Source of the DNA: Tribonema minus
Taxonomy: Eukaryota > Sar > Xanthophyceae > Tribonematales > Tribonemataceae
Assembly (NCBI GenBank): GCA_017506865.1
Contig: JAFCMP010000111.1
Span: forward strand, 181,958 to 245,957
Reading direction: 5' to 3'
Length of the DNA: 64,000 nt
Below the pieces are notes generated by a model. The model was not told where the DNA came from, searched no databases, and worked only from the letters and a program-made list of their open reading frames with translations. This document shows positions 10,306-63,418 of the stretch, piece after piece. The position numbers were made by a program, and so were the translations under genes. Each line of letters begins with the position of its first letter. The stretch's first letter is position 1.

Positions 10306-13300
10306 GCGTCGCCGACACAACCGAGGGAGCCTCTGCCGGATGGGTTCTACCACGAAACAGGCTTGGACAAGCTCTCCCTGGCCTTATTCAGGAATCTGGT
10401 GCAGAGGGAAATAGGCTTCAAGAGCGAGAAGGAGGGATATGAAGGGCTCATTGAGGAGGCACACGTGAGTTTGCTATCAGCTTTGTAACAGGCGTTGCAG
10501 ATGCATTAGGGCTTGTGGCTGTTTCCCTGCAGCTTACTGAGTGTGGTTAGCCAAAAGTGCAGCATGAGGCTAACTTTGAAAGCCCACTCCTTTAGGCGCA
10601 GCAGGATGGTGCAGTGCATGGCTTGTAGAGCTAACTATGAACGACAAATGTGGGGAAGCGTTCGCCCACCCAAGACCAGGTGTTTCGACAGTCGCTGAGC
10701 AAACATTTTTTCAATGCAGCTTGCAGACGCCTCGTCTCAGGAGGGTCATCAAGCCTTAGTCACGCCGCTTGCTGTCTGAATTACGCAGCATGCGTGTTTT
10801 GAAGAACGGTGATCATATGGCCTCCACAATGAGCTATTTAGTCAAATGCCCGGGTTTTCACTTCTCAGGTCGTATGGCACAAGGCAGCGCTATGCATGCT
10901 GGCAATGCATTACATGTAGCGCAAGGCCCCGTGACGTCCTGCTGGCCTCACGGTTCCCGTCAATCTGCTTCAAACTTCATTTGCTCTGGCCGAGCCCACT
11001 TGAACCTGTCGCACTTCAACATTTTCACTGGGGTACCGTACTGAGGTCTTCAACACGCTGGCATCTGGCGCGTCCACCCGTATCTGATGCTGCTGCTGCT
11101 GCTGCTGCTGCTGCCATGTCGCTGTTGCGCTGCAGAACTACATGGTGGTGCAAAAAGCGACGCCGGAGCAGCAGGTTGACATGGTGCAGAGGTGCCTTGA
11201 GGTGAGGGCCCCACAGCTGCTGCACTCTTGAAATTGACGTTTGATTTGATTCACGCCATGAAGCGTTGCCATGGTGCATTTGAAGTTTGTACTTTGAGCG
11301 AGGCGGCGCACCTTCTTCTGTCTCTGCAACCGCGCTGCAAGCGCTTGTGTCATCTGGTTTTGCAGCTCTCACACACACGCCCCAGAGGCGCACCGTCCTC
11401 CGTGACAGGGCTCCCACACATGCGTCACGCATCACGCGCGCATGCGGTTCATCGAAAACAACAAGTCATGCTTTTTCTTCAACTACTCGCACAGCATACC
11501 TCTGCTCTGCCATCGCCTTGCTCATGAGCGCGCCCAAAAAAACAGCGTTGACAGTGCGGAGGGCGCACGATGGTGACAGTGCTCAACCGCAGACGCCCAT
11601 CCCTTGCGCGCACGCTATTGCCGCAGCATTCAATGCACGCCGCGCGACGTGTACACCCGCTGAACGTATCCACGCCTCGTGTGCCAACTACTCTCACGAC
11701 ATCCAGGTGCACAACATACACTCACTCAACACACTTTGCCTCGCGTGCACGCTACTGCCGCAGCATCGGGCTGCGCGACATACACACGCCCACTGACCGC
11801 ACCCATGCCTCGCGTGCGCAGACCATTGCGTGCCCACCACTGCCGCAGCACCGACCTGCACAATCTACACTTCCGCTGAACGCACCCATGCCTTGCGTGT
11901 GTGCGCAGACCATAGCGGGCCCGCTGGTGCATTGAGCTGCGCGATATACATATCTTTTGATTCGTTTTTTATACATACATATACGGCTAACCACACCTTG
12001 TCACCCAGAGCTCTCTGATCTTTTGAATTGTTTTCATACATACCCACTGAACGCACCCATGCCTTGCGTGCGTGCACAGACCATAGCGGGCCCGCTGGTG
12101 CCACCGGTGTACCGCACATTCATGGCGCCGTGGCCGTGGGCACCGTTCCTCACGGCGTTCTTTACTCCCCCGTTCTTCAAGTTCCTGGTGGGGCCTAACA
12201 AGCTAGACATGCGCTCCGACGGCACGGTGAGCGCCCTGTCCGAAGCTCATTTGGGGTGTCTTCTGCAGCCCCTTTGTGGGCACAGTCAGCCCTCTGTCCA
12301 ATACACAAGGGGGAATCCGCTCTGTCTGAAAGCGCATTGCTAACTAATTTCTGGCATCTCCTGAGCCGCGGATGATCTTGCTACAGCGGCGTGTGATACG
12401 CGGCGCGGTGAGTCCCCTGTCCAACACAAGACGGGGGATCGTTAACTAATCTGTAGGCTCTTTCTGGGCCGATGATCATCTTGCTGAAGCGGCGTGGTGA
12501 GCCCCCTTTCCAACGCAAAAGGGGGAAACTGCTATTGAAATTTCTGGTATATGTGGGCTCTTTTTAGGCCAAAGATGGTTCGCTGATGCGCTGCCCTGGT
12601 AAGCCATAGAAGTATCGGAAGGCGCGTCTGGATGCAGAAGTGATGTGGTAGTAGCCCCCACTTCCGCAGTAGAAGAGTTTGCACAATCGGCGCATCATGC
12701 CCTGGCCCGGAGTAAATTCCATCATGCAGGCCCGAAAGCAGGCCCCGGTGGCGTCTCAGCTGGCGACGCGCCAACTGGAGTAGGTGAATTACGGCCTGTT
12801 TGGATTCTGGGGTGCAAACCTGCACATACATGCGCGTGTACACATCTGCATTTATTACGGTCAGGGTTAAAGTTGAGGTAGGGTTAGCCTTCACCGAACC
12901 CTGAGTCGTCCTGAGAGCTGCGCCTACATGCCTACTTGTCTGTGGCTGCTGTGCAATGATTAGTCTGATGGTGGCATGCTCACCAGTGCACAATGCCTGC
13001 GTTGCCCGCTGCGCAACATGTGGCACACCTGTCATTGCGCATACTCGCATACCCGCATTGAGATCGTGGCACTGGACCTGCAGTGTGATGTGGACATCAG
13101 CTGCAGTAGGCTGCTCCTGCGCGCCCTCGCCAGTTGGGTCAACTCACGGCGGCACCCACATCTTCCAATAGTTCAGCAATCGAGGATACAGCAAGGCTTT
13201 CTGTGCATGTTTCTGATCAGCTGGAAAGCCTACTTGCCATTCGCCCCTCTTGTATTATCACGCAACACACCCAGTCCGCTGGCGTACCTCTGCTGACTTC

Positions 13301-17139: not shown

Positions 17140-20100
17140 CTAATGCACCGTAGGTATGTAAAAACGTACCTTGGTGGCAGTGCTTGCCCGCGCCTCTGCG
17201 GCCTTCCTGGACTGGTTCTTCTGGTGCTTGGACCACATGTTGTCGATAAGCGCGGTGAAGACCATGGCCACGCCCGCCCACTGCTTGGGGCTCATGGGGT
17301 GCCCAAAGAACAGCACGCTGAACAGGATGGTGAAGAACTTGCGCGTTGTCGTAATGGTGGTGCACACGAGCTGCAACGCAGGACGAGAGGTGCAGCGTCA
17401 GTTACGGCAGTTCTGGTGACAGTTACTGTGGTCGATGAGCGCGGTGAACACCATGGCGACGCCTGCTCACTGCTTGGGGCTCATGAGGTGCCCAAAGAAC
17501 AGCACGCTAAACAAGATGGTGAAAACTTGCGCGTCATGGTGATGGTGGTGCACACGAGCTGCGGCAAACACGAGAGGCACAGCGTCAGTTACAGCAGTTA
17601 TGGCAGTTACAGCGTGTAACAGTGCACGCCACGCGGCGAAAAACTTGCGCATCGTGGCCATGGTGGTGCACACAAGCTGCGGCGCGAGACAGCAGCACAA
17701 GGCGCGCAGCGTCAGCTACAGCAGTTACGGCAATTGCGGCATGTATCTGAGCGCCGGGCGGCGAAGAACTTGCGTGTCGTGGTGATGGTAGTGCACACGA
17801 GCTGCGGCGCGGGACAGCACCACAAGGCGCGCAGCGTCAGTTATGGCAGTTACTGCGTTGGCGGTTACAGCGTGTGTGTGTGCGCACCGGGCGGCTGCGG
17901 TAGCAGATTCTGCTCAGCGGTCCTGATAGAGGCTGCAGTGCAGGATCGCTTGTCATTGGGTAAATGTGCAGCCACAAGAGGCAGTAGTGCACGGCTCAGG
18001 TCGCACATAGAGTTGAAACCGCTGCAGACACCTTGTAAGCCCAGACAGTGAGCACTATTGTGGCAACTGAGAGCCATCTGCAGCCGCCTTGCACGATTAT
18101 CACGACAGGAGAAGGCTCGCAAGACCCCACTAGGCTGGATTGTCTCACGACCAAGAGCAGCAGCTGCACACATGCCCGAAGCAGCTTCAGATCCGACTCA
18201 ACTAACAATGGGCCGCGCCACGCGCTGAAAGTTACAGGAACACATTAGCGCCGAAGACCATGAAGGCTGCGCACCCCACGAAATGCTGGAGCGAAATTCT
18301 GCGCAGGTGGCAGGGTTCTGACGCACGTACTGCATCCTCAGTGTGAGTGAAATCAGTTCAATAACGAACTTGAGTCTTTCACTCAAGGTCGTTATTGAAC
18401 TGATTTCACTCACAATGTTCAGGTCGTGCCAGAGTCCCAGATCTCAGGCAACCCTTAAGTTCTATCAACAGACGACAGTGCGCACAAGCGGCGTTGAAGA
18501 CAAATGCGTGCCTATGCACGCCGATCTGAGCCTGCCGAACGCGTCTGTGCTTACCGAGCTGAAGTGGCTGATGGTGAAGTAGATGAAGTTCTGTCCAAGC
18601 GCAGCCGTCAGCGCAAACCCAAACAGGTCCCTGCACAAGAGAAGTTGCGTGCCGCCATGGCCGGCAAGTCGCGTCAACAACCGCAGTGACGCAGTGAACT
18701 GAGATTGCATGACAGGGTAACTATTTCAAGAAGAATGATACCTCAACAAGTACATTCTCTGCGCTGTGTTCTCAAAGGGACAGGCACTATGAGCTCCAGC
18801 AATGAAGCGACTGCCTTCTAAAACGCCCAGTATCCGGCTTAATGCCCTGGTGTTGAACATATTACTGAGGTACACTTGAGCGCAGTAGCAACTGCCTGTG
18901 AGGTAACTGCCTGCCCCGGAACCCAGACTACATTGGGCAACGCTGGCAAACTGAGCTGTGCCATGATCTATCGCACTTTTGATCAGTGAAGCGACTGCAA
19001 ACCTGCCCTGTGTTTGTGTGGGGTGCCCTGGTGTTGAATGCATGCTTGTACAATCAAGGGCAGTGGCAACTGCCTGTGAGGTGACTGCCTACCTACAGGA
19101 GTACTCCAGACTGAATTGGAGGACGCTTATGAATGGAGCTGTGCCATCATGAATCGCACCTGTGAGATTACATCGTCTGCTCGGAATATGTACACCATCA
19201 CACCCAAGTCACGCAAGCTTGCACGATAACACACACATATATATATGATCACTCTGAAGCGGCAGCCATAGCCCCTGCAGACGATACTTATACTCGAGGA
19301 AACATGGTCTTTGTGCCTGCGATGGCCACGCGGCGCCATCAGCCGTGGCGCAGGTGCTGATGTTGGTGCTGCATCAGTCTACACATTCGAATAATCAAAG
19401 CAACCTGCAACAAGTGCTGTACTTGAACTTGAAGTAAACCATGCTTCAAGTTACATTACAAACAAGGTGAGCAACAATTTGCCTCAAGGGGCATCTGAGC
19501 ACAAGTGACTTGCTTTCTTCACCCAGATGTTTCTGGTAATTTCCTGGTCAGCAATGCTGTCAGACATCTTCTGTGAGCCTGCTTGCACGGCTGATGAGTG
19601 ACACTTTGATCTTGCTCGGGCACAGCGTGTTTCCCCCCTTGCAAATCATATGTCCCCCTCCTCCTGTGCCGTGATGACTGCTACCGGCTTGTGTGTACGA
19701 AGACACTGCTTGGTGTTATCATGAAGTAATAATATTTGGGCACATTTGTTCACAACATGCACCCCCTCCACCCCCCATGCCTTGTGAACACCGCAACCGG
19801 CTTGTGAGTACCAATGCACTGTTTGTTGTCATCATGTCGTGATGATAGTTGAAGTCATGTATGCACAAACTCTCACCTGAGCACTGCTGGGTTCTCCTGG
19901 CAGAACGCGAACCCCCCCGCCGCCTGCCCCTTCAACACCGCCACCGGCTTCTGTGTGCCAACACACTGATAATGATAAAATATAATGCCGATGACTGCAG
20001 CGGCGGCGACCACGATTATTGATGGAAGGCACTTGCGGCTAACCACTCCTTGTCACCTGGAGCTCTACGATCTTTTGATTCATTTGCATGATGATTGAAC

Positions 20101-23100
20101 CTATTTGTTTTTCAACAGCTCTCACCTGAGCACTGCGGTGTTTTCCTGGCAGACCGCGTACCCCCCCGCCGCTTGCTCCCCAACACCGCAACTGGCTTGT
20201 GTGTACCAGCACAGTGCTTGTTATTTATGAACAAAAATACTGAAATTGAACACATATTGTGCACAGACTCTCACCTGAGCACTGCAGGGTTCTCCTGACA
20301 AAACGCGTACCCCCCCGCCGCCTGCCCCGTCAGCACCGCCATGGGCGTGAGCACCACCAGCGCCCATGCATTCATCCAGAACATCATCTCGTGCACCGTG
20401 TGCTTGTGCGCGCGCTTGATGTTGTCCTGAGAAGAGCGGCGAGCAGCAGTTGAAACTTCAGAGGCTTCGGCAACGGCGGCAGCGCGCATGTACGTCACTG
20501 ATGGGCGTACCCCTAGCCCTGAGTCTAGAGCATCAGCAACTTAACGCTGTGCTGTTGCATGTGACTCTCACAAAATCACAGTACAATTTATCCCTCCAGA
20601 AAGCAAGGGCGTTATTGAAACGTTGTTTTAACTTAAAAGCTTAGCAGTATTTGAAACAGCATATGAACACTGCATGACGCCACCGTAGCCCAATTCATGT
20701 TAAGCGACGCGCACCAATACACTGATGCTGTACAACAACTCGAGACCCGAAGGCCTCACAAATGCCTTTCCCAAGTACTCTGCCAATCAGCCATCCACAG
20801 TTTTGGCTGCGCTGGCTTCAACATTGCCACCCAACTCTCCGACACTGTGCATGTACCACCAGTGCAGGGCTACAAACAATGCACAACCACATGGATTGCT
20901 CCGGGACAGCGACGCACGCCAAAACTAACTGCAAATGACTGAACTTCAAAACTGAACTTCAAGTACCTGCGTGCTTCCGGTCACTCCGTCCAGCACCAAG
21001 CTCATGAACAGCAGCGCCAATCCATATGTGCTGTTCTCGCGGCCCTGCAAGAGATACGGGTAACAGCGCTCTGCATTATAAACACTTGGCAGCTCAGTGG
21101 CGGTTTCAGCGCTCTGCGTCATGAACATTTGGCAGCTCTGTGGCGGATTGAGGATGGCGAGAGCAGCATGTGAAGTGCAAGAGTGCCGCATTTCAAGAGC
21201 GCAATGGCAACAAGTGCAATTCCTGCTCAGACCATATTCACTGACTTGTGCTTGCCAATGGGTCAAAGGTGACAATGCCCACGGCGACGAGCGCGACGCA
21301 TACTCAGACCCCGACTCACTGACTTGCGCTTGCCGGCGAGGTTAACGGTGACGATGCCCGCGGTAATCAGCGCAACGCCTACTCAGACCCAGACTCCTGA
21401 CTCACCGACTTGTGCTTGCCGGCGAGGTTAAAGGTGACGATGCCCGCGGTAATCAGCGCGACTCCTACGTAGTCGCGCACGCTGTAGCGCTTGCCCGCAA
21501 ACACCACGCCGAAGAGCATGACGGGGATCATCTTGCAGCTCTTGCCGAGCTCCTTGGTGGGGAAGTTGATGTAGTTCAGGGACTCCAGGGAGCAGATCAT
21601 GGCGCTGATGTAGCCCGCTCCCGCCATCGAGAATAGCTTGTGGGGGATCGCCTCGCCGCTGCCCTTGGCTGTTGAGGGGGGAGGGGGGGGGGGGGGGGGG
21701 GGGGGCAGTCGCCAAGGTGCTCATGTGTGTGTGAGCTCGGGTTCTCGGTTACTTCAACAAACCTACCAAGCGGCAACTTCTAATAGTACCTGAACAGTAG
21801 GCACTGCATTAGCAAAGTGTAGTGGTGAAAAGAATCTTCGCAATGGCACTCCTTCTTGCTGTCATTGGCAAGTACTCGTGATGACACCACTGAGCTGCAC
21901 GCCAACCTGCTGTGTAGCAAGAGTGAAGTGTTCCAGCTTGCTTGCTGATGCCTGAGCAGGCTCACAGTTTAGCAATGTTAGAACTGCGCCTGGTCAGCTT
22001 GGCTGGCAGAGCCGGTGTTTCACCAGTATGTTACCAAATATGCTGGAGTACACCAAAGTAGCTTGAGTGGCGTGATGTAGGTCAAAACGAACGTTTGTAG
22101 GCTAAAATCCCTTCCCAGTTAATGGGTTGCAAAGCAGCAACAGAACAGCTGATGCACTTGCGCTTTGCACTGCAAATTATCACTGGTGGCCAACGCACAG
22201 GGCGAGCGTGAGACGCAAGACACGACTGCTGAACCACTCACAAAGGTGAACACAAGTGTTAAAAAGGTACTTTGAAGTACATCATTGTTGCAATTTGTTC
22301 CAACCTGCTGTGTAGCAAGAGTGAAGTGTTCCAGCTTGCTTGCTGATGCCTGAGCAGGCTCACAGTTTAGCAATGTTAGAACTGCGCCTGGTCAGCTTGG
22401 CTGGCAGAGCCGGTGTTTCACCAGTATGTTACCAAATATGCTGGAGTACACCAAAGTAGCTTGAGTGGCGTGATGTAGGTCAAAATGAACGTTTGTAGGC
22501 TAAAATCCCTTCCCAGTTAATGGGTTGCAAAGCAGCAACAGAACAGCTGATGCACTTGCGCTTTGCACTGCAAATTATCACTGGTGGCCAACGCACAGGG
22601 CGAGCGTGAGACGCAAGAAACGACTGCTGAACCACTCACAAAGGTGAACACAAGTGTTAAAAAGGTACTTTGAAGTACATCATTGTTGCAATTTGTTCTG
22701 CATATAGCTGACGTGATTTGATGTGTGGTGCTAATGCGCCACGCTGACATGCCTTGAGTGGCTGCATGCATACGATGTGGAAGTGAGTTGTGCTTGTTGA
22801 GATACTTCTGAATTCAATTGTGCTTTTTGAACTAGGTCTGAATCCAACGTGTGTGCGCGATCATTGAAAAGCAAACAAAAGTACAGGGGGTATGCATTAG
22901 CTTGCCACACCGTGACTCGGCTGTGGGTGCCTGAAGGCATGCCTGCAACACAACACTCAATATGCTCAAGTAGAGAGCTGCGGGCTAGTTGTGAAACTTT
23001 CATGTGCTGCAGTGAGCGCACGCAGTTCATAATCAAAGTCAATAATGCTGTCCTTACTGTTGTGCCTGATTTTAGTGGAAACATAGATGCATGTGGTGGT

Positions 23101-46121: not shown

Positions 46122-49100
46122 TTACAGGATCAGCGCCGCAGCAGCGAGCAGTGCGCCCAGCAGCGCGCTGCCCGCCGTCACCGCCGCGGCGGGGGCGCTG
46201 TTTGTGCCCTGCGCCGACATCTCGCCCACCACAACACTGTCTGAGGTGACGCTGGATGACGTGGTGTTCAGGCTGGTCGCGATGGCGGCGGAGTAGGCGG
46301 GGCTTGTGGCGGCGGTCTGCGATGGGGCGATGGGGGGGGGGGGGGCGCACGGGGGGGGGGAAGCACATGCAGTGCAGCACATTCAGAACTAAAAACCTGA
46401 AGCGTGAACGTCTGCATTGTGAAAACAATGGCTTTGGTGGCATCGAGCTTCAGGTGTTGATGACTGTTGAGGGCGGTCGCCGAAAGCACGGCGTTGCCAG
46501 CGTAGGTCTGCAGTCAGAGGATGACTAGGTCTGGGGTGACATGACTCTGAGCAGCACCTCTGCAAGTCAGCAGACTGAGCATTGCCATAATTTGCAAGCC
46601 TGGTAAGTGCAGGTCAAAGAAGCCGTCAACATTGAAAGCTCGATCGATGCAGGTTTTGAAGTGGCCACAATTTCACGCCAGATGGAGAGAATCCGCCGCG
46701 CACTCGTGCGCAAGGCCTGCGAGCGCCGCCGCCTACGGCACTTGCACCCCCAGCTCTGAAGCAAGACCAATATTCATCATTGACGTTGTCAAGCTCCTCC
46801 ATGTCCGCATCACACCGATCCACAAGCACAGGTGATGACAGGGCGAATGCATTTGCTGCGGTCACCAGCGGTCACCTTGCAGTCGTCCATGAGCGCTGCC
46901 GATGGCAGTTACAGCGACGTCCACGTCGCTCACGCCCATGAATGAATTCACATTGACAAGCCCCTCCACGACTGCATCACACTCATCCACAAGCAGAGAA
47001 GATGATGCATGCGCCGCAGTCACCGGCGCTCACCTTGCAGTCGTCCATGAGCGCGATCTGAGCGCTGCCGATGGCAGTCACGGTGACGTCTACGTCGCTC
47101 ACGCCCGTGGCGAGGCGCCGCGCGTACAGCACGCGCGTGCGCGTGGCGGAGTACGTGCAGCTCGAGATGATGACCTGCGGCGGCGCCAGAGATTGAGCGT
47201 TGAGACGCAGCGCAGCAGCGGAGTGATACATTAGTACTATGCCGGATGTCATATGCGCACTATTGCGCACCTCAGCCCGCATGCGCTTCAAGCACAGGCG
47301 ACGCAGCGCGCGCCCGTGCACCTGCATCGTCACCTCACCCTGGCATTCGCCTCAAACTTCAAACTGCCATCAAACTGCTGACTGAAACGGCGTGCGCGCG
47401 CCTACGGCACCTATCAACTTCAAGCACGTGCGAGCGCGCGAACTTCAAGCGTGTGCGAGCGTGCGTCCGCGCACCTGCGCCGTCGATGCCCGGGTAATTA
47501 ACACCACAATTCAAGCATCCACCATTTTTTTCTTTCTGGGATCGGCGATCGCCACGCATCATACGCAGCGCAACCAACACTTACAGTGCCACATAGCACA
47601 CCTCAGCGCAGCATCAACGAACTTCAAACGCGTGCGACCACGCACCTGCGAAGTCTCGATGCCCAGGTGGTCCGCCGTCCCCTGAATAATCGCCTGCAGC
47701 TGGCCCGCGTCGCCGCACACGTCCTGGCCCGAGACGTGCAGGCCGATGACAAAGCTCTGAGCGCTGCCGTGCGCGCCGGGGCAGAACTGCAGCATCGTCG
47801 CGGGGTCGGTGTCGGCGAGGTTGAGGCCGCAGGCGGCGTCCAGGTCCGTCCAGAAGTCGGGGGTGTCCTCCTGAGCGATGGGGCAGCAGCAGCAGGGGGC
47901 GGGGGCAAGCGCGTGAGCAGCGTAAGAGTGGGGGCGGCGCGGGCGCGATGGCGGGCGGCGGCAGCGCGCGATGGGGCAGCAGCAGCGCGCGCGGCAGCAG
48001 CGAGCGGGGGCGTATGAGAGGCGTAAGAGCGGGCGCGGCGCGGATGCGATCGTAAGCAGCGTGCGGGCTTGTTCTCTGTGATGGGAAGCATCGATTGTGC
48101 TGTCTGCCGTGCATGGCGGCCGAGACCGCGTTGTTGTTGGGGCAGAGCTGCAGTGTGCTGTCAGCGCCAGGAATGTTGAGTACTTGCTGCGTCGGCCCAA
48201 TTTAGTCTGCAGGTCCGATGACAGGGCAGCCAGCAAGGCAGCTTGTGCGGAGGTGTGGCGTTTGAAAGAGCACACATTGCTGAGCATTCATGCAACGGAC
48301 TGCATGTATCAATAAGCACACGCTGCTGAGCAACGCCATCGAGGTGGACGGACCGCAAGCATTGATAGCATTGATGTACTGTAGGCGCGCAAGATGTTCA
48401 AGCTGTTTCCGGACACTCACAGCCGATAGCAGTGGTTGTGCTGGCGCTGCCGCTGAGCATCAGCAAAACAGTGCGCGCAGTCCACGCATCCGGCGTCATG
48501 ACCGCTGCAGCGCTGCCGTGTGTGCTAACAAGCATCACAACTACGAAGTTCCATATCCGTGCAGGCTCCAGCAGCAAGCGCAGGCTGCGCACCTTTTGAT
48601 CTCAACTTGGACTTGAACATCAACCTCAAGTGTGAACTTCGCCAAGAAGGAATGTTCAGATCCAAACTGCAAGGTCAGGGCCTGTCAGCACATCACATCT
48701 GTCGCTGCTATGTACAGCATGTGCCAAACACTACAAAGAGTCGCCCTCTGCACAATCTTCAATTTTGAAGTTCAATATGCGGCAGCGCTCACCATGGGCG
48801 GCGCGGCGGCCATGATCTCGCGCATGCAGCACCTGGACTTGAGCGGCGCGTTGTTGGTGGTGCTCGGGCACAGCGCGGTGATGGTCGTGCTCGTGTCGGT
48901 CTCGTTGTAGGCGCTCATGATGGTCTCGAGCGTGTCAAAGCAGGAGACGGGCTTGGCGCTGGCGCTCGCGGCGGGGGAGAAGGCGCACAGCAGCCTCAGC
49001 GCTGCGCGCGCCATGTCCATGCCTGCGCATTCGTGAGCAGCGGGTGACATCCGGATGAGCTGAGCGCATGCTACGCCTGTGTGTTACGTAACGCCGCTAC

Positions 49101-51727
49101 GATTACTGAGCACAGTGTACTTCTGATTGCGGTGATAGTAAGCGGGTGTGGTGCGCAGTGTCCAGTACACACCAGCTTAGCGCTGCGCGCGCCATGTTCA
49201 TGCCTGCGACAGCGCGCGGGGCGGGTTCATCATCTGTGTTGAGCTGAGCGCGAGATGCGCATGCGTGCTTCGTAACGCCGCTGCGCTCACTGAGCAAAGT
49301 GTACTTCTGATTGCGGTGGTGGTGAGCGATTGTGGTGCACAATGTCCAGTGCACAGCACAGATTGCTGTGCACAGTGTCCAGTGCAACGCGCCCTCAGCG
49401 CTCCGCGCGCCATGTTTGTACCTGTGGCAGCGCACAGGGCGGGCGCGTCTCTGCATGACCTGAACGCGTAACACACGCGCATTTTGCGCAGTGCGGCTGC
49501 GCTCGAACGCGATGCTACGCGTAGCGCAGTGGTGCTCAGAAGCGGAGCCATGCGCTATCGCCGGTGCGCGCAGCAAACGCGGCGCTGCGCGGCGCGCGCC
49601 GCCTCTGCCTGCGACCGCGCGGTGCATGGGCGTGGCGCCGCGGGTCGAACGGCCGTGTCGCAAGCGAGCGCGTCAAAGTGGCAGGTGCGAGTGCGTCAGG
49701 AGCGCTCTCTACAGCGCGTTCGAGGCGTGTGCGCGGTTGAAGCGTGTGCGCGGTTGAAGCGTGTGCGCGGTCGCACAAAACTCTGCACAGACACAACCTC
49801 ACGCCGAACAGAACAGCGTGCGCGCTGCAGACTCCGACGCCAACTTCAAAGCGCACTTCAACGCTGCCTCTATGTACGTACCGTTGCCCAAGCTGCCGAG
49901 GTCCGTCTGACTGGACAACATGGTGGAGTTGGTGCTGCCGCCGCCTCCGTCCGAGGAGTGGAACATGTCGAGGCACGAGCCGCCGTCGTGCATGAGCTGC
50001 AGCAGCGCCTGCACGGAGTCGTACAGCTTGTCGTAGCAGTGGGAGTCGTTGCAGATGGCGGCGACCATGCCCAGCGTCGGCGTTGCGGCCTGCGGGGGCA
50101 GTGCGAGCAATGCGCTTTGCGGGTCAGCATGTGTCGCAAAGTACTGCTGTCCTGCATGTAGTTATTGAAATTGTGGTGAGAATGAAGCGGGCACTGACGC
50201 AGCAAAGTAGAATCACGTACGCCCTTCGCGCCCTGAGCGAGGATGAATGAAGGGCGCCGCCACGAGCTGCAGGGTCATCGTGTGAAGCGCTGATATGTCC
50301 TGAAGTGCTGACAACGATCATACAGCTATGCCGTAGCAGTGCCTGTAGTGATAGGCGGCGACGACTGTGCCGAGTGACGTGGCGCGGCGCCCTGCATGCT
50401 GTGATAAAACACAGAGGCGCATGCATGTATGGGCACTGCATGATCTACGCGTCCCAGGAAAGCACGGTCAAGTGCCCGTTGGCACAGTCATCTCGGTCAC
50501 ACTGCCGCTACCAGCAATGTAGTGCCATCATCACAGTAACAAAAAGGCAAGTGACTGAATACTGCCCTGGCAGGCAGTGGCGGCCACGCAGCACGAACGT
50601 CGCCGCAGTGCCACCTGTATGATGATCATCACCGCCCAACATCTCACCTTTCTGGTGGGATCCTTGAAGAGCGCGTCGAAGTGCGCGCTCCCAGGGTCGT
50701 TCTCGTAGTACGGCGCGAAGACGGTGACGGGGCACGCGCTGTCGGTGATGAACGCGTCCTTCTGCGCGACGCACGCGTCCAGCGTCGAGCCCGTCTTGCC
50801 GTGGCACGCGCTGCACAGGTCGTTGAGCGGCGTGGTGAAGTCCGTGCTGAAGACGGTGGACGCTCCCGCTGCGGTCGTGTGGCTCGCCAGGCAGTCGACA
50901 AAGTCTGGTGAGGGTGGCGGCGGCGGAGGAGAGCAGCGGATCGAGTCAAGTCGGGGGATGAGGGCAGGAAAGTCGGAATGTGGCAAAGTGCTGCGGCCTG
51001 CATGCTAGGATGTCATGTTGCCGCATCAACTGATGATAGTGGTGGGGCAATGCAAAGTTTTCAAACAGGTCCATGATTGTCGTGCCCACATGTGTCAATG
51101 CCTGTGGCTTGCATGTGCCAGCACACGCCGCAAGTTAAATAGCCACCACACTGGCGAGCCACCCTTCGCCGAAGCGCTTGCACGTAAGCGCAGCAGTCTG
51201 TGCTGCACAGGGGGCTTTCTGCAATGCTATGTTGGTGTTACGTGCCATGCACGTGTAGCGCAGAGGCTCCTTTCAGCGAAACGAAGCTACTTACCGATGA
51301 GAGGCACTCCCACCTCGCAGACCAGGTTCATAAAGCACTCCCCGGCGGACTGTGAGAGACACCGCAAGAAACAGGAATAGCAGCGAGTAGCCCGTTGTGA
51401 GTGCGTTTGCTGGAAACCCTTGCAGGTGTATGTAGCACCTGGCTTCAGTTGTGCTGGCGTCAAGAATATATGCTCAGCTTCGGCACTTACGCTTGCAGCG
51501 GCAGCTTGGATCGCTCTCTGCTGGCTGGCACATTGGCTGGTCGCCAGGCTGCGGCCAGCGCGTATTCCAAGCGCACTGAGGTACCACTGGTGGTCCCGCT
51601 TGAGCGCGCTGAGGGTGCTGTGCACCATGTCGGGGGTGAACACGCCGCTGTGGAGCTGTGCGAGAGGCACGCAGTTGCCAGGCACACCCAAGGTGGCCAC
51701 CGCTGCTACCACTGCTGCTGCCCTCAT
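46122..51727 (-). CDS. Secreted cysteine-rich GPI-anchor-type protein, copy B
   Basis: Eight exons in transcript order join in phase: 51727-51491, 51349-51295, 50904-50648, 50089-49882, 49022-48793, 47870-47646, 47174-47034 and 46316-46122; 515 residues. Exons 2, 3, 6, 7 and 8 have exactly the same lengths as in copy A (55, 257, 225, 141, 195). It has a signal-peptide-like start (MRAAAVVAAVATLGVPGNC), then HSTLSALKRDHQWYLSALGI, the same cysteine framework (FVDCLASH, DLCSACHGKTGSTLDAC, ICNDSHCYDKLYDS, CCMREI, AACGLNLADTDP, SSCTY), a Ser/Gly-rich insertion in exon 4 absent from copy A, and a hydrophobic C-terminal tail (ALLGALLAAAALIL) ending at TAA, as in GPI-anchored proteins. Function unknown. 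The reverse-transcriptase ORF ends only about 270 bases upstream of its ATG, in the same orientation. Confidence 0.83.
46332..46360 (-). repeat. C-run polypyrimidine tract before last exon of gene B
   Basis: Plus-strand G runs of 14 and 10 bases are sense-strand C runs shortly upstream of the acceptor at 46317. Confidence 0.8.
46862..47033 (-). repeat. copy of gene B exon-7 donor junction
   Basis: The donor side of exon 7 (plus strand CTCACCTTGCAGTCGTCCATGA at 47030) is copied about 158 bases further into the intron at 46872, followed by the same GCTGCCGATGGCAGT and GACGTC-ACGTCGCTCACGCC blocks. An intervening 'catcacac.catccacaagca' block is also duplicated. Confidence 0.8.
49023..49440 (-). 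repeat. array of gene B exon-5 acceptor copies
   Basis: Copies of the exon-5 start lie upstream at about 49203 and 49421 (plus strand CTGCGCGCGCCATGTTCATGCC and CTCCGCGCGCCATGTTTGTACC). Between them are intron blocks (GTAACGCCGCTGCGCTCACTG, TTCTGATTGCGGTGGTGG) that also occur in the corresponding array of copy A. Confidence 0.8.
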
Positions 51728-55887: not shown

Positions 55888-57573
55888 CCATGTATTAAGC
55901 CAGGCATGGTCCTCTTTGTTCGCGTCGCCTCAGGGCTGCTCATGCCTAACTGTTGAGCTTTTGCAGTCAGCACTGGCAGTGACTACAGTACAGTGTCACC
56001 GCAACTATCCAAAACAGCACACAGTAAGTAGATTTGATGAGGCCCAGCCGATGATCGTGTGTGTGCACAGATGTCAACGCCAGCTCACTGTATCCCTCAC
56101 ATTACATGGAGTCATCGACCCATGGCACTGGCCCATGCACATAACTTTTGTCGAGTCGATGCTTGGTAAGCCATCACAGGGGAAGCCATGGTGATGATTC
56201 GTCTGCACAGATTTGCGGCACGGGTGGTGGCAGGGGGTGCACAAACAGAAGTGCGCAATGGGAACAGCTCACCAAGCGCAACCAAGGTGGGCTTGTCAGC
56301 GAGCGTGTCTGGCACAGGAACAGCACTTGAGCGTGCACAAGACCTCGTTGAGGGCACGAGCATTTTGCGCGGCCAGTCACAAATACCCTCAAGTCATATA
56401 TATGCTGCTAAAGCATGTTCTTGGTTACACACAAACTCACCAAAAAGTGCAGTTCAACGACGGTACATCGCAGTTCAATAAAAATAGTTGAAGTTGTCGG
56501 CGACCTCCATGTTGAAAGGCGCTGGCGGTGGGGCAGGCTGAGGATCGGCGCCGCTGGATAGCATGTTCAATATAGCGCAGCCTCGAGGCAGACCAGCAAA
56601 ACGCAGTCAACATAGCCCAGCCAGCAGCACCAGCAGAAAGGATGCACCACAGCGACGGATTGACAGGCATATAGCAGACAGCGAAGCAAGAGACGACGAG
56701 CCACACCGTACATCAGTTGTGGTACCACCGCCATCAAGCTTCGTGTATGTACCTCAGCCATTTTTCGGCTCCGTGGCACGATGCGAAGCTGCAGCTCCTG
56801 CGGTGAGAGAATGGTCAAACTGCGCTGGTGTGGATATCAGCGTGTCGCATCTTGTTTGATGGTACTTCAAGGTTAAGCTGAATCCACTTTTCCTATAGCG
56901 CATGGTGAGTGGAAAATTGAGCTTCGCATGCTTTGAGGCCCTCGGGTATTCACTTCCACAATTGCGTGCGTCGCTGGGTGTTGACTGCCGCAGCTGCGGT
57001 CTCAGCAATGGTCTGCAACTTGAGAGCGATGGGATCCGTTGCAAGCAAGGACGATGGCACCGTTACTTGTCGGTCGGCCTCCCAGCGCATAGTGTCAATG
57101 CGCCATGGCTCAAACTTCAACACTGCACTTGACACGCAGCCTGTAAATCCTCGCCCCCATGAAATGTGAATGGCAAGGCGCCGCTCTTCATGCACGCGAA
57201 GAACATACTGCGCCGCCTGCTCTCAGGTCTTGCTCGGCTATCATGAGTGCAAGCTCAAGCAAGCCCTCCCACTGCTATCATGCTGCACACGCGTGCTACG
57301 CAAATGCCAGTCAGAAGCCGGTCATCAGCGGCCATGGCAGCTCACGAACCTCAATCACCCTGCGCGCATGCATCACGGTGCTCATCACGCTACGGCTGCG
57401 GCCGCCCACGTGCCTCTGCGATGGGGGGGGGGGGGGGGGGGGGGGCGCAGCTACGCGGAGATGGCCCGCGCGTCGTTCAGCGTTTTAGCAGGCAGCCTTC
57501 ATGCTTTACGTGTATGGATACCACGTAGACACAGTCAATTGCTTATATATCAGGTAGACAGTAGGCACAGTCA
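55888..57573. other. intergenic, no gene seen
   Basis: Between the divergent reverse-transcriptase ORF and Tom40. Probably contains the 5' flank of the element and the promoter or 5' UTR of Tom40. No convincing coding block. A 23-base G run lies at 57423-57445. Confidence 0.45.
57423..57445 (+). repeat. poly(G) tract, 23 bases
   Basis: An uninterrupted G run about 130 bases upstream of the Tom40 start. Unlike the others it is G on the sense strand of the nearest gene. Confidence 0.85.
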
Positions 57574-60500
57574 ATGTTGACCTCAACGAATCTCCCTACT
57601 TCGCTCCAGCACAACTCAACATCATCTGTTGAACTTCAACTTCTCGCGCGCCGCCAGGAGGACGCGCAGCAGCTGGAAGCAACGCCCACGCTGCTCGAGC
57701 AGGCGGATGAGGCAGTGCTCAGCAAGGCGGAGACAGTGACGACGCCGCCGCTGTTCACGGACCAGTACAACCGCGTGAAGGGGCTGGTGCAGGCGGACAC
57801 GTGGGACGGCGTGCGCGTCGACATACAGCGCGCGCTCACGCCCACGTTCTTCTCGGCGTACAGCGGGCTGCTGGGGTCATCGGTGAGAGCGCACACTTGA
57901 AGTACATGGGTTTAAGCGCGGTCAGTTGAGGTTTGTTGCTGCAGCTTTACGGTGTCATGTAGGCTAGTTTCAACGGCAACACATACAGCGCGCGCTCACG
58001 CCCACGTTCTTCTCGGCGTACAGTGGCCTGCTGGGTTCGTCGGTGAGAGCGCAGCGTCGCGGTCAGCGTCGCTCAGCGAGCGGCAGTTTGTGAGCCTTGT
58101 CAGTTGAGGTTTGTTGCTGCGTATTTACGTCATGTCATGTAGGTTAGTTTCAACGTCAACACATCCAGCGTGCGCTCACGCCCACGCTCTTCTCGGCGTA
58201 CAGCGGGCTGCTGGGGTCATCGTTGAGAGCGCATACTTCAAGTACATGGTTTGAGCGCGGTCAGTTGAGGTTGGTTGCTGCAGGTTTAGGTCAGCTCAGT
58301 GAGCGCATGTAGTTTGAGCGTGGTCAGTTGAATACTTGCTGCTGCAGCAGTTTTGCGTCATGTAATTCAGGCTAGTTTTGACGTTAAGGGCGCGACCGCG
58401 AGACCCGTCGTGCATGAAGCTCGTTCGCGTCATTGTGTCTGTTCGGGTCTGCAAACGCATGCCTTGAGAGCGCGGCGCGCTCGCCAGACCCACTTGCTCG
58501 CGTCATCGACTCTGCATGTCACTCTTCGAGAGTGCTCAGGTGCGTGTGGCGTGGTACTTGCCTACCCTCAGCGGCGCTAGGCGGCGCTAGTGCGCTGGCG
58601 CCAGAGCAGCCCATGTCACGCACTTCGCTGGCCACGCGGTTAGGGTTAGGTTAGGGTTAGGGTTAGGGTTAGGGTTACGCCCTTTGCCGCCAGCCTTGTC
58701 AGCCTCCGTCAGCCGTGGCACTTCAACAAACGGTCATGACGCATCGCCTCCTACTTGCATGGCTGCACGCTGCAGCTACATGCGGCCGCCGCTGCTCGTC
58801 CGCCATGTTTTCAAGATGTGTGCGCCCCCTCTTGAAGTAGGTACTTCAAAGTCCATTGAAGAACTCAAATTGCGCTGCCTTCGATGGTTTCCATGCCTAG
58901 TCGCCTACGTGCTGCAGGCGTGCGCACTGCTGCGCACGCGCTGCGCACCTTTGTAGCACAACACAAATACTTCGCTTCATAGGGATAGGGTTAGGGCTAG
59001 GCGCCAGACGCGCATGCAGTCGCTCCTTCCGCGAGGCAAGGGCCGCCAATGTCTCTCGCCCCCGCACGCCGCTCATGAGATTCACATCAGATCTGTCTGT
59101 CAAACTGCATTCGTCTCATCAATACGAAATTTATCATAGACCTGAAAGGGTGTTTGCGTGCGCCTTTCTGTCCATGTTGTTTTCGCTGTGATGCGCAGGC
59201 GGTGCAAGGCGGTAACGCGCTGACGTTCACGTCCACGGTGGTGTCAGAGGACCAGACGCGCGTGCTCATGGGGCGCATGAGCAAGGACGGCGACCTGGAT
59301 GGGCGCGTCTTCTGTCCCATAGGTACGTAGGTATCGATGCTGCGCCAATCCTCACCCTGTTCCTATGCCACCTTAGTCCTGGCGACCCCTGCACGGGCGC
59401 TTCTTCTGTCCCATAGGTACGTAGGTATAGATGCGGCGCTAACCCTAACCCCAACCCTAACCCGAGACCTTCGTCCTGACCGTAAGAAGCATGCGGCAGC
59501 ATACCCCTTGCACTTGAACAGACGCTAACCTCAACCCTAGCCCAAGCCCTAATTTAACCCTAGAACGTAACTCAAGCCGTAAGAGGCATGCGGCGGCATA
59601 CCGCTTGCACTTGAACAGAAGCGCGTGCTCATGGGTTGCATGAGCAAGGACGGCGACCTGGACGGGCGCGTCTTCTGTCCCATAGGTATGTAGGTATGGG
59701 GGCTGCGCGAAGCATACCCTCTGAATCTTACAAGGCCCACACTGTCTGTGATTTACGTCATCATTGCATCGGGGAGTATTTGCATGCGGCAGCGCACCCC
59801 TGGGTTTTCAGCGAAGCGCATGCTCAGACCATTCGCGTCTATAAATGCATCCAAATGGGTCATCGGGCGCGGCTTCTGTCCCATAGGTATGTAGGTGTGG
59901 GTACCGCGCGCGAAGCATACCCCCTGAACCTCTCGCTATGCCCAGACCATCAGTGTCTTCTTGCGTCACCATTTTCATTGGGAAGTGTCTGCATGCGGCA
60001 GCAGACCCCTTGGTTTTTAGCAGAGCTCATGCTCAGCGTGTGGCGTGTGATTTCCCAATGTGGCACGTCACCGGGCTGCACTTGCGCACTACGCAGTTGC
60101 CCTGACTGATCACGGCGCCCTCTCGACGCGCAGGCAACATACTGGGCAAGGTGCAGTTCACGCTGGGGGCGCAGGACACCATACAGGCGACCGCGGAGAT
60201 GAAGGACAGCAGCTCGGCGTGCCAAGTGACCGCGGGGCTGGGGACGTTCGGGTTCAGCTTCAACCAGGTGACGCCCCTACTGTACCTGGTTGCTTGCAGT
60301 TGTGCAAGTTGAAGTTGAAGAATCTGCTACTGCACTGGTTGTTTTGTCGGTTGTCAGAGCAGTGTCAAGCCTCGCTCAGTTGAACCCTACAGCGCTTGGA
60401 GATCGCTGCAGTAGATGAGTCGAGTGAGTAGTTGAACTTGAAGAACATGTGCGGGCGTCGCCATGCACTGCTGTCATGTTTTATGCCCAAGCTCGCAGCG

Positions 60501-63418
60501 GCAGACAAAGTCAGCTGCCACGGTGGCGCATGCATACAGACATGCATGCATGTAGGCTGGTGCAGTGGCGGTGCGCTGCTGTGTGTATCCGTCTCTCTTG
60601 CAAACACCATTCGAATCAGGAACGCTTCTGTGTAGTACACCATAGGATTCAGAAACGCTACGGGTGTACGGGTATATGGCACCTCATGTTACCTACCGTT
60701 TGTGGCGCCGTGTCTTGTTCGGGCCCACAGCTTGTAGTGGCGAGAGCGAGCGCGTATGGCAAAGTTTGCCTATACAGACAAGTATTTCAGGTACGCATCG
60801 CCATCACCACCTACGAACGTCACTGCGTGCCTCCTGTCTGGCAGGGTCTGACGGCACGCCTCACTGTGGGCTTGAACGTCATTATTATTTGCTTGCTACC
60901 TCTACCCTGGCTCGTAAGACGACAGGAGCCGTGCATGCCATTCTACATGGTGTTTGCTGAGGCATCGCCAGCAGCATGCCCCTTTAGAACCCATGACTGT
61001 GTTTCCTCTGTTTGGCAGGCGCTGACGGCACGTCTCACGGCGGGCATGGGCGTACAGTACTCTCTATGCTAGCCTACCAGCTACTGTAGTACTCTGCTGC
61101 AGCTACGTGCCTACACTTGCTGGACGGCACCAGTCAAGAAGTGGTGCACGCGCTGCTTCCTCCCCCGGGGCTCGTCGCAAAAAGTACACATTCCGAGGCC
61201 TGTTTCCCCTGTCAAAAACTCATGACTGTGTTTTGTTTTCTCTGGTTGGCAGGCGCTGACGGCGCGTCTCACTGCGGGCATGGACTGTACGTACCACGCG
61301 CAGATGGGGGATGCGCCCATTAGCGTGGGGGGGCAGTACCAGACGCGCGACTGGACTGGCAACGTGCTGTACGGGCCGGTGCGTCACCTGTTGAAGTTCT
61401 TATTTGCATTTTGAACTTTATAATTCAGCGGCAAACATGCAGGCCGGGCTGTACAGGTCGGTGCATTGCCTGTTGAAGTTCTTGTTTGCAATTTGAACTC
61501 CGTGCTTCAGAGAAATGTGCCGCACGTGGCGGTACGTCACCTGCTGAAGTACAGTTTGCTCTGTTCTCGTTGAGAGGCGACATGCTGTATGGCACCTATT
61601 GAAGTCGGTTGTTGAGTAGATGAGTGGCCCCTTTTTCGCACCCAAGGCTTGAGTATGAGTGTAAGTATTGACGTGCCATGTTGTCATGTACTGTCTTCAT
61701 TCAGAGGCAGCGTGCTGCACGGGCGAGTGCATCACGTGTTGAAGTGGTTTTTGCTCAGTTGAACAGTGATGCCATCCGCAAAAGGTGACTTGCCCTCTCA
61801 TCACGAAACCGATGCAGCACTTGCGAGCTGCGCACTGCAGTCTTTTGTTGCGTAAGCTGACCTGGCGCAAGCAGCTAATAGATGCACATGTGCACGGCCA
61901 TATATGCACATGTGCACGACCATATCGACAGGCATCCTCCGTCTATGCCTGCTTGCGCTGTTGCTAGTGCCGCCGTCAAGTGTTCTCAATGTTTGGAAAC
62001 GCACCTGTGTGTGCGAAAACAGGCCAGGTTTGCGCGTTGCAGCAACTGTCGCGCCGCGCGTAGGCACTGCACACGCACCACACGCCGCATTGCCTGCAGC
62101 AACCAGCACAGCTGCGGCCAGGTGCACAGAAGCGGCAGTGACGCCTCAGGTACAGCACAGTTACAGTGAGCAGCGCTCTGCCAGCAGCACTCTCCTCCCA
62201 TTGCACGCACGGCATGTCCCCCCCCCCCCCCCCCCCGCCCCCCCTTCTCCCCCCCTTTTCAAGCTCGGGCCGCCAGGGGCATGCCGTTCTGCCGCGGCGG
62301 TCGCGTTCTGCGCACTGACCACTGCTGCTGATGCTGCTGTGCTGTGGTGTGCTGTCTGTCCACTGTCTCCGCAGGGCATGATGCAGCTGCAGTACGCGCG
62401 GCACGTCAACGAGAGGGTGCAGCTCGGCGCGGAGCTCGCGCTCAACCCGCTGCGGCCGCAGGAGAGCGCCGTCGCTGTAGGTGAGCGTTGCCTGATCCTA
62501 ACCCTAGTCCCAACCCTGATCCTAACCCTAATCCTAGGTGACCTAGCCCCTTAGCGTCGCAGCGGGCTCGCTGCTGCGTGCGTAAGGCGGCAGCCTAACT
62601 GCGCATTGCCACGTCTTAGCAAGATGCATACTCGCCTAGGGTTAGGAGTAGGTCAGGATTAGGGTTAGGATTAGCGTTTGCACCCCTGTGCGCAGAGCGG
62701 TGCCTGAGTGGTGGCGACCCACAAGCTAGCGCCTCGTAAGGTTTAGGGTTGGCATGTATGCACAGCGATGTTACTCCACAGCATTTCTACAATCAAGCAT
62801 AGCACGATGATGCTGATGCGCGTTGTAAGCAGAGCAATGCCTTTGATGAATGCGGCGGCTGTCAGTGACGTGTGTCAGCACACGTTAAAGGCAGCGCTGC
62901 CCCCAGGAGAGGCATTTGCGAGCGCCGTTTATTTTGGCCTTGGAGGGATGTCGCTGGTCAACTCGGTAATGAGGGGCTGCCTCAGTGCTGCAACGCACCC
63001 TGCACAAACACATGAGAGACTTTGGGGTTTCGCTCTTGGTAAGATCAGGGTTAGATTTAGGGTTAGGTTAGTCTTGTTGTGATGCTGCAGTGCTGAGGTA
63101 TCCGTGTAACTGTCTCAACATGCAGGCCAGAAGAATAAATCAATAGTTGCACGAACTCCTCTTACCAAACAAAGACCACTGCACGACCCATTACACCAAA
63201 CTCACACTTTTTTGCTCGCTGTGACGCTCGTCTCAGGCGCGGAGTTCAACTTGAAGCAGTCCAAGTTGCACTTTGCGGTGAACGGCAGCGGCACGGTGGA
63301 CGGCAACATTGAAGTGCGCTTCCTCCCCATGGCGAGCGTGTCGTTCGCGGGGCAGTTGAACCACGTCGAAGACAAGCACCGCTTTGGGTTTGGCATGCAG
63401 ATGCACGTGCAGGGTTAG
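57574..63418 (+). CDS. TOM40: Mitochondrial import receptor Tom40 (beta-barrel pore)
   Basis: Six exons join in phase: 57574-57882, 59199-59322, 60134-60267, 61253-61378, 62375-62480 and 63237-63418 (TAG); about 326 residues, normal for Tom40. It shows the family pattern: YNRVKGLVQADTWDGVRVDI near the N-terminus, GRMSKDGDLDGRVF, FTLGAQDTIQATAEMKDS, ALTARLTAGMDCTYHAQ with QYQTRDWTGNVLYGP, LQYARHVNERVQLGAELALN, and a last exon rich in alternating beta-strands (VNGSGTVDGNIEVRFLP). The final strand RFGFGMQM matches the beta-signal (charged-x-Gly-x-x-hydrophobic-x-hydrophobic) read by the outer-membrane SAM machinery. Tom40 forms the channel of the TOM complex for nuclear-encoded precursors. The start at 57574 gives a variable N-terminal extension; an upstream exon is possible. 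Every intron carries junction copies, several also telomere-like tracts. Confidence 0.88.
57883..58390 (+). repeat. array of Tom40 exon-1 donor-side copies
   Basis: The end of exon 1 (CAGCGCGCGCTCACGCCCACG at 57826 through GTGAGAGC) is copied at about 57986 and 58166, periods 160 and 180. Each copy is preceded by GGTTTGTTGCTGCA, a TCATGTAGG and TAGTTTCAACG; two further copies of that intron part occur near 58262 and 58325. The copies still encode most of ALTPTFFSAYSGLLGSS and keep a GT donor-like site. Confidence 0.88.
58638..58677 (+). repeat. interstitial telomere-like repeat (TTAGGG)n
   Basis: About six TTAGGG units, one shortened to TTAGG, in Tom40 intron 1. It is the longest such run in the window; another, AGGGATAGGGTTAGGGCTAG, lies at 58981. 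Confidence 0.85.
59323..59915 (+). repeat. array of Tom40 exon-2 donor-side copies
   Basis: The functional donor (TTCTGTCCCATAG|GTACGTAGG at 59322/59323) is followed by copies at about 59400, 59672 and 59872. The 59630-59700 copy retains about 50 bases of exon, including ATGAGCAAGGACGGCGACC. All keep TTCTGTCCCATAGGTA.GTAGGT, so every copy holds an intact donor-like site. Confidence 0.88.
59439..59563 (-). repeat. degenerate CCCTAA tracts in Tom40 intron 2
   Basis: CTAACCCTAACCCCAACCCTAA at 59439 onward and a looser run at 59523-59563, between successive junction copies. The orientation is opposite to the TTAGGG run in intron 1. Confidence 0.7.
60840..61252 (+). repeat. array of Tom40 exon-4 acceptor-side copies
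   Basis: The functional acceptor (TTGGCAG|GCGCTGACGGC at 61252/61253) is preceded by copies at about 61018 (TTTGGCAGGCGCTGACGGCA) and 60846 (TCTGGCAGGGTCTGACGGCA), spaced about 170-235 bases. Each has the same upstream block ('catgactgtgttt'). Confidence 0.85.
61379..61760 (+). repeat. array of Tom40 exon-4 donor-side copies
   Basis: The exon end GTGCTGTACGGGCCG followed by GTGCGTCACCTGTTGAAGTT is echoed at about 61447 (GGGCTGTACAGGTCGGTGC), 61527 (GTGGCGGTACGTCACCTGCTG) and 61708 (GTGCTGCACGGGCGAGTGC), each followed by a TTGAAGT-TT block and 'gaac'. Both sides of this exon therefore carry junction arrays. Confidence 0.75.
62218..62236 (+). repeat. poly(C) tract, 19 bases
   Basis: A sense-strand C run, extended by further C-rich sequence to about 62258, in Tom40 intron 4, about 140 bases before the acceptor. 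Confidence 0.8.
62492..62752. repeat. degenerate telomere-like tracts in Tom40 intron 5
   Basis: CCTAACCCTAGTCCCAACCC and relatives at 62492-62540 (C-rich strand up), then TAGGGTTAGGAGTAGG at 62636-62677 and GGTTTAGGGTTGG near 62740 (G-rich strand up). A further TTAGGG-type tract lies at 63043-63070. Opposing orientations flank the same intron. Confidence 0.7.

What the first reader, a model, noticed from the sequence alone, without database searches (positions are those of the whole stretch)
11590..61760. Introns are seeded with tandem, decaying copies of their own exon-intron junctions
Seen directly: at least ten splice junctions in six genes (CH-domain, D27-like, UAA transporter, both cysteine-rich paralogues, Tom40) have two to five copies of the junction (exon edge, splice site, adjacent intron) lying in the neighbouring intron, on the intron side only. 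Both donor arrays (12219, 19640, 21241, 46862, 57883, 59323, 61379) and acceptor arrays (4526, 11590, 17371, 29784, 49023, 60840) occur. Spacing is mostly about 80-250 bases, often 150-190. Divergence grows with distance in some arrays. Tandem duplication of AGGT-containing exon segments is a known route to new introns; repeated duplication of existing junctions as a general mode of intron growth, retaining decoy splice sites, is to my knowledge not a described genome-wide feature. Inference: a replication- or repair-based slippage process acting at splice borders, possibly linked to nucleosome-sized units.
Basis: partly seen in the sequence, partly recalled or inferred. Interest (0 to 1): 0.88.

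Follow-up and report, generated by a model that had tools for sequence, protein, structure and literature searches.

The report
Introns seeded with splice-junction copies
In sampled genes of the yellow-green alga Tribonema minus, about four in ten exon-intron borders have one or more decaying copies of themselves in the neighbouring intron, which points to local tandem duplication at splice borders as a recurrent way for introns to grow.

Summary
The genome is Tribonema minus. In the window 11 splice junctions in five genes carry 1-3 extra copies of their own junction (exon edge, splice site, adjacent intron) on the intron side. In conserved genes elsewhere 63 of 163 junctions have such a copy within 700 bp, against 1 of 163 by chance, 96 of 1,224 inner non-exonic tests and 0 of 89 windows 120-180 bp inside exons. 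Nearest copies lie about 155 bp away (quartiles 124-182) with no frame preference, usually head-to-tail (38 of 57). Decoy splice dinucleotides are kept about as often as the same dinucleotides elsewhere, and a transcript-derived protein uses the true junctions. They look like neutral debris of repeated tandem duplication across splice borders; tests did not support intron birth by AGGT duplication, shared mobile elements, or whole-exon duplication. Part of the junction excess may be anchoring by the constrained exon; whether duplications also arise more often there is unresolved. Nucleosome phasing is not supported. Ten full-text searches listed no description of it as a genome-wide feature.

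The parts
11790..12102 (+). acceptor array of the D27-like gene: true acceptor 12080, copies near 11909 and 11826
   Evidence: D27-like_C domain
17238..17895 (-). acceptor array of the UAA-transporter gene: true exon starts at 17370, copies near 17557, 17684, 17809
   Evidence: true site used in transcript-derived protein
19654..20359 (-). donor array of the UAA-transporter gene: true exon ends at 20275, copies near 20126 and 19877
   Evidence: true site used in transcript-derived protein
21206..21498 (-). donor array of the UAA-transporter gene: true exon ends at 21406, copies near 21320 and 21241
   Evidence: true site used in transcript-derived protein
29746..30345 (-). acceptor array of cysteine-rich paralogue A: true exon starts at 29783, copies near 29957, 30145, 30339
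46779..47109 (-). donor array of cysteine-rich paralogue B: true exon ends at 47034, copy near 46876; no counterpart in A
48985..49504 (-). acceptor array of cysteine-rich paralogue B: true exon starts at 49022, copies near 49206 and 49422
57821..58298 (+). donor array of Tom40: true exon ends at 57882, copies near 58042 and 58222
   Evidence: joined exons equal the annotated protein
59250..59910 (+). donor array of Tom40: true exon ends at 59322, copies near 59414, 59685, 59886
   Evidence: joined exons equal the annotated protein
60830..61294 (+). acceptor array of Tom40: true exon starts at 61253, copies near 61024 and 60845
   Evidence: joined exons equal the annotated protein
61358..61765 (+). 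donor array of Tom40: true exon ends at 61378, copies near 61460, 61531, 61726
   Evidence: joined exons equal the annotated protein

Best explanation
Segments of about 80-250 bp that span a splice junction are duplicated head-to-tail, repeatedly and in many genes of Tribonema minus. The outermost copy stays the working junction because the exon it carries is needed; the inner copies become intron and decay neutrally, so introns grow from their ends. Shown: the copies, their mostly tandem layout, their concentration at true junctions, their limited depth into the exon, decay of copied exon edge and splice dinucleotide at about the neutral rate, and use of the true junction in a transcript-derived protein of one gene. 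Inferred: the DNA-level process (replication or repair slippage), and that the junction excess mixes anchoring by the constrained exon copy with more births or better tolerance near junctions.
For: 63 of 163 conserved-gene junctions copied vs 96 of 1,224 inner points, 1 of 163 by chance, 0 of 89 deep exon windows. Within introns of 600 bp or more, purely intronic windows at the junction 32 of 136 vs 7 of 136 at 300-360 bp, discordant 29:4, p=1e-5. 8.6% of exon bases (1,913 of 22,251) have a copy of 80% identity or more nearby, in 20 of 33 predicted genes. Homology fills the spacing in 38 of 57. Distances show no frame preference, 18:17:15. Exon parts 83% and intron parts 72% identical; GT kept in 23 of 32 copies vs 47 of 65 controls, AG in 33 of 38 vs 73 of 95. 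True sites in transcript-derived protein P0014, 340 of 342 residues. Paralogues differ in one array.
Against: In purely intronic windows the excess fades for the most similar pairs (1 of 178 vs 9 of 1,068 at score 42 or more), as expected of longer survival rather than more births. AG in acceptor copies is kept slightly more often than control AG (87% vs 77%), and a cruder count gave 62 of 75 dinucleotides kept vs 57% expected. Genes differ strongly (permutation p=2e-4), unexplained. Transcript support covers one gene; Tom40 support is an annotation. No reads, no second species.
Confidence: 0.65

Rival explanations
1. Local tandem duplication is uniform along genes. Junction arrays only look special because the exon copy cannot be lost and changes slowly (anchoring and detection), while duplications inside exons are purged.
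For: Inner points are themselves often duplicated (96 of 1,224) and 24% of sampled intron bases lie in local repeats (20,917 of 85,543). The purely intronic excess fades at high similarity. Intron-side-only copies are expected from selection.
Against: Purely intronic windows beside junctions still show 2-3 fold excess at lower thresholds (44 of 178 vs 91 of 1,068 at score 22; 29:4 discordant pairs). Uniform placement predicts deep exon copies that are missing: exon fraction over 0.7 in 86 of 337 simulated vs 1 of 38 observed, although selection could also remove these. A back-of-envelope estimate of anchoring by substitution alone is below 1.6-fold (no call).
Confidence: 0.28
2. The decoys are functional: alternative or regulatory splice sites kept by selection.
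For: 62 of 75 copies keep the splice dinucleotide; acceptor AG 33 of 38 vs 73 of 95 controls; many decoys keep their matrix score.
Against: Donor GT is kept exactly as often as control GT (23 of 32 vs 47 of 65). Distances show no frame preference. The transcript-derived UAA protein uses the true sites at three array-bearing junctions; low-level use cannot be seen.
Confidence: 0.05
3. The arrays are relics of intron birth by duplication of an AGGT-containing exon segment, or of tandem exon duplication.
For: In 11 of 129 introns the first 200 bp match the downstream exon start and in 11 of 129 the last 200 bp match the upstream exon end, against 0 by chance.
Against: None of those matches has the register that birth requires (intron start to exon start, intron end to exon end); they are array copies in short introns or decoys called as exons. 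Copies are exon edges, not exons: 0 of 89 windows deeper than 120 bp. A few decoys are long enough to match a domain model (C5, C51, C135).
Confidence: 0.04
4. Dispersed introner-like or other mobile elements inserted beside junctions.
For: A dispersed repeat of about 150 bp (39 other places scored) lies in a Tom40 intron between two acceptor copies.
Against: Junction windows do not match flanks of other loci (1 of 163; 0 of 131); window self-alignment shows few cross-gene matches outside the paralogues and the FNIP genes. In one search the rest of the 3.9-kb stretch had only two short other hits, but only the 40 best of 192 candidates were scored, so dispersal is not excluded by that call.
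Confidence: 0.02
5. Assembly or consensus artefact.
For: No reads were available; the assembly has apparently duplicated contigs.
Against: Copies diverge by 8-41% with a step in identity at the splice site.
Confidence: 0.01

Closest known systems
Junction-spanning tandem duplication in a potato RdRp gene (PMC4974935; passages seen)
   Same: A tandem duplication copied part of an existing intron-exon structure, including the 3' splice signals
   Different: One gene, one copy, and the copy became a new spliced intron plus exon piece; here many genes, repeated copies, left inside the intron
Intron gain by tandem duplication of an AGGT exon segment (Rogers model; Drosophila cases PMC2891723, passages seen)
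   Same: Short tandem duplications that involve splice signals
   Different: That creates introns from exon sequence; here existing junctions are copied and no birth register is seen
Tandem exon duplication and mutually exclusive exons (PMC9013439; sections 4 and 5 and passages read)
   Same: Exon-like sequence in neighbouring introns
   Different: Whole exons with both splice sites there; here edges only, and 8.6% of exon bases vs 0.06-0.08% in worm and fly and about 2% in human, with different methods and sampling
Introners (PMC9860276 and PMC7789003; passages seen)
   Same: Repeats tied to introns
   Different: Introners share sequence across many genes; these copies are locus-specific in the tests made
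Minisatellites (general knowledge)
   Same: Head-to-tail units, several found by Tandem Repeats Finder
   Different: Placed across splice junctions more often than elsewhere in introns

Membership tests
Junction-spanning tandem duplication (potato RdRp type) | unit contains both exon and intron sequence in original order | tested here: met
Junction-spanning tandem duplication (potato RdRp type) | duplicated splice site is used | tested here: inconclusive
   true sites used at three UAA junctions in a transcript-derived protein; decoy use elsewhere unknown without RNA-seq
Intron gain by AGGT duplication | intron start matches downstream exon start and intron end matches upstream exon end, in register | tested here: not met
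   0 of 129 introns in register; 22 off-register matches
Introner | same sequence in many unrelated introns | tested here: not met
   cross-locus matches 0 of 131 and 1 of 163; whole-genome search of one stretch only, 40 of 192 candidates scored
Introner | target-site duplications or terminal inverted repeats | not tested
   no call
Tandem exon duplication | complete exon with both splice sites, frame kept | tested here: not met
   0 of 89 windows beyond 120 bp; distances 18:17:15 over the three frames; a few longer decoys exist at C5, C51, C135
Minisatellite | head-to-tail copies whose homology fills the spacing | tested here: met
   38 of 57 junctions

The most novel reading that the evidence does not exclude
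Splice junctions are preferred sites of local tandem duplication in this lineage: some feature of the exon-intron border (co-transcriptional splicing, chromatin, a repair intermediate) makes the stretch within roughly 60-90 bp of the border on the exon side, and about as much or more on the intron side, duplicate repeatedly, so that introns grow from both ends by re-copying their own borders.
Probability: 0.4. Interest if true: 0.88.

Novelty: new variant of a known kind. Interest (0 to 1): 0.72.

Why it matters
It gives a visible record of how introns lengthen, with the source sequence preserved beside its copies. It fills introns with near-copies of real splice sites that the spliceosome must ignore, a natural test of how true sites are chosen. 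It also warns that gene finders in such genomes can call decoys as exons, as mine did.

Tried and rejected
Nucleosome-sized units: distances are broad (quartiles 124-182 bp). Decay with distance as a rule: not seen. Functional retention of decoys: not supported for donors, marginal for acceptors. Splice motif itself as the trigger: strong pseudo-sites 11 of 91 and 34 of 261 vs random inner points 33 of 356 and 40 of 356; real junctions 26 of 87 and 24 of 86. TTGAAGT as trigger: enriched near donors but only weakly linked to arrays (9 of 20 vs 23 of 103, p=0.05, one of ten such tests). Intron length per gene: no significant link. Allelic copy of the Tom40 region for a turnover test: none among the scored candidates. 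Donor and acceptor arrays of one intron occur independently. Co-occurrence with telomere-like repeats: too few cases.

My first profiles limited the search to predicted introns, which hid copies wherever the gene finder called a decoy an exon; exon windows 60-120 bp deep then read 1 of 158 and 0 of 136. With a fixed 700-bp flank the same window reads 8 of 145 and junctions 63 of 163, so I use. Six of 169 junctions were dropped there as exons duplicating a better match (listed; with them the count is 68 of 169). In some searches introns with low gene-finder scores or lengths outside 150-3000 bp were left out (one search kept 129 of 249). Gene-finder versions (did not run; tiny exons everywhere; lost the plus strand) were replaced. 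Coding ends as a control: starts 0 of 12, stops 4 of 26, of which two look like misread donors and one like a true stop; inconclusive. One window acceptor (29783) was entered one base off, in opposite directions; one search confirms 29783.

Literature: ten full-text searches (one term was malformed) listed no paper describing genome-wide arrays of junction copies. I saw listings only, capped at 5-20 rows, and passages of six papers; sections 4 and 5 of PMC9013439 were read whole. Subscription papers are not held; the Tribonema genome report is recalled, not seen, and Zhuo et al. 2007 on human introns from tandem arrays was seen only as a reference.

Full report
What it is. The window is the last 64 kb of a 245,957-bp contig of a 158-Mb assembly. 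Protein matches on a contig of the same length name it Tribonema minus, a yellow-green alga, Xanthophyceae.

Observation. Self-alignment shows some twenty local direct-repeat regions. Reading the sequence and aligning each junction to its intron confirms copies of exon edge, splice site and adjoining intron at 11 junctions in five genes: D27-like, UAA transporter, two cysteine-rich paralogues and Tom40. The exon joins are sound: joined Tom40 exons match the annotated T. minus porin over their whole length at 100%, and joined UAA exons match a transcript-derived protein at 340 of 342 residues, across three array-bearing junctions. That protein's name is in the style of the Trinity RNA assembler (recalled); its species is not shown.

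Sampling. It covers 37 segments and 254,260 bp, window included; 95 of 102 domain matches lie in frame in predicted exons, though these matches were also training data. Donors read CAG|GTGAG and acceptors GCAG|GT. The families were not chosen for repeats and the domain-supported junctions all lie outside the window; one locus (C51) had already shown overlapping matches when I extended it.

Main test. In 163 domain-supported junctions a 60-bp window centred on the junction has a copy within 700 bp outward in 63 cases (31 of 78 donors, 32 of 85 acceptors), in 21 of 31 segments. Flanks of other contigs give 1 of 163. Inner points at least 250 bp from any predicted exon give 96 of 1,224 (two directions per point, 69 stretches, gaps between predicted genes included, so not independent). 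Exon windows give 51 of 163 at the edge, 31 of 163 at 30-90 bp, 8 of 145 at 60-120 bp, 4 of 107 at 90-150 bp, 0 of 89 at 120-180 bp and 0 of 44 at 180-240 bp. Intron windows fall from 45 of 163 at 0-60 bp to 15 of 160 at 240-300 bp.

Paired test. In 68 introns of at least 600 bp, with equal 240-bp targets, purely intronic windows at the junction give 32 of 136, against 7 of 136 at 240-300 and 7 of 136 at 300-360 bp; discordant pairs are 30:5 and 29:4. Strong splice-like sites inside introns are not clearly enriched over random inner points.

Prevalence. In 95 domain-supported exons 8.6% of bases (1,913 of 22,251) have a copy of at least 80% identity in the adjoining flank, in 20 of 33 predicted genes (decoys called as exons are included). 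A published survey with another aligner gives 0.08% for fly, 0.06% for worm and about 2% for human (PMC9013439). Methods and sampling differ, so only the order of magnitude counts.

Anatomy. Nearest copies lie 82-308 bp from the junction, median 155, quartiles 124-182, spread 18:17:15 over the three frames (50 junctions). In 38 of 57 junctions with a spanning copy the homology fills the spacing, a true head-to-tail tandem. Uniform placement of duplications across junctions, simulated with the same detection, predicts exon fractions above 0.7 in 86 of 337 cases; 1 of 38 is observed (KS p=0.002). So duplications reach little into the exon. Selection against longer exon copies or a bounded duplication tract could both do this.

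Fate of the copies. Outside the splice motif, exon parts are 83% (3,170 of 3,813) and intron parts 72% (5,923 of 8,249) identical to the true copy, as expected if one side of an exon-intron pair but both sides of an intron-intron pair change freely. The step sits at the splice site. The splice dinucleotide survives in 23 of 32 donor and 33 of 38 acceptor copies; the same dinucleotide elsewhere in the exon part survives in 47 of 65 and 73 of 95. A cruder expectation from mean identity (57%) had suggested retention, 62 of 75. Decoys are therefore not detectably maintained at donors, with a marginal surplus at acceptors.

Turnover. The two cysteine-rich paralogues share an array at one acceptor (29783 and 49022), but the donor array at 47034 has no counterpart at 28152 (score 38 against 14). 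Of the other eight homologous pairs none in A reaches 20 and two in B are weak (24 and 25). The unit tree does not sort cleanly by paralogue, so the age of the shared array is undecided.

What it is not. None of 129 introns has the register expected of birth by AGGT duplication; 22 off-register matches are array copies or decoys. Junction windows do not match other loci. A 3.9-kb Tom40 stretch searched genome-wide found, among the 40 best of 192 candidates, itself, 39 places of an embedded dispersed repeat of about 150 bp, and two short hits in telomere-like sequence. Copies are exon edges, not exons, with a few longer exceptions.

Why junctions. Two causes are entangled. Anchoring: the exon copy cannot be lost and changes slowly, so old junction arrays stay visible. 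In favour, the excess in purely intronic windows fades for the most similar pairs (44 of 178 vs 91 of 1,068 at score 22; 1 of 178 vs 9 of 1,068 at score 42). Birth or tolerance bias: in favour, windows spanning the junction show a rising excess with similarity (50 of 173 vs 95 of 1,068 at score 26; 7 of 173 vs 7 of 1,068 at score 56), part of which is exon constraint. My back-of-envelope estimate of anchoring by substitution alone is below 1.6-fold (no call). The sample cannot separate them. Genes differ more than chance allows (19 genes with at least four junctions: 0 of 12 and 0 of 8 in two chaperonin genes, 4 of 4 in three others; permutation p=2e-4), and intron length does not explain it.

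Novelty. A single-gene precedent for tandem duplication of an intron-exon structure exists in potato (PMC4974935, passages). Repeated, apparently unused copies at about four in ten junctions were not described in anything my ten searches listed. I file it as a new variant of a known kind: local tandem duplication with an unexpected placement and prevalence.

Noticed in passing
introns in general (129 sampled): TTGAAGT is over-represented in introns (70 occurrences, 15 expected from a third-order model) and 24 of the 70 lie within 50 bp of the donor; possibly a splicing signal.
   Followed up: partly
introns in general; e.g. window 58638-58677, 62491-62536: Telomere-like TTAGGG/CCCTAA stretches are strongly over-represented in introns.
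   Followed up: no
window 61060-61209: Dispersed repeat of about 150 bp with at least 39 other places in the genome at 82-91% identity, lying between two copies of a Tom40 acceptor.
   Followed up: no
window 21902-22698: A 398-bp tandem duplication at 99.5% identity inside a UAA-transporter intron, away from junctions.
   Followed up: no
contigs C90/C179 and C223/C144/C278: Kinase matches with identical or nearly identical scores suggest duplicated or haplotypic contigs, which could serve to test array turnover between alleles.
   Followed up: no
window 52000-55929, minus strand: Open frame of 1,309 aa with a reverse-transcriptase domain match just under the curated cut-off.
   Followed up: no
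window 33026-35158 and 25083-26747, minus strand: FNIP-repeat open frame at 33026-35158 and a DNA-similar open frame at 25083-26747.
   Followed up: no
sampled genes: About 10% of predicted donors are GC rather than GT, and poly-C runs are common in introns.
   Followed up: no
sampled genes: Junction copies cluster by gene: some genes have none in 12-20 junctions, others have them at every tested junction.
   Followed up: partly
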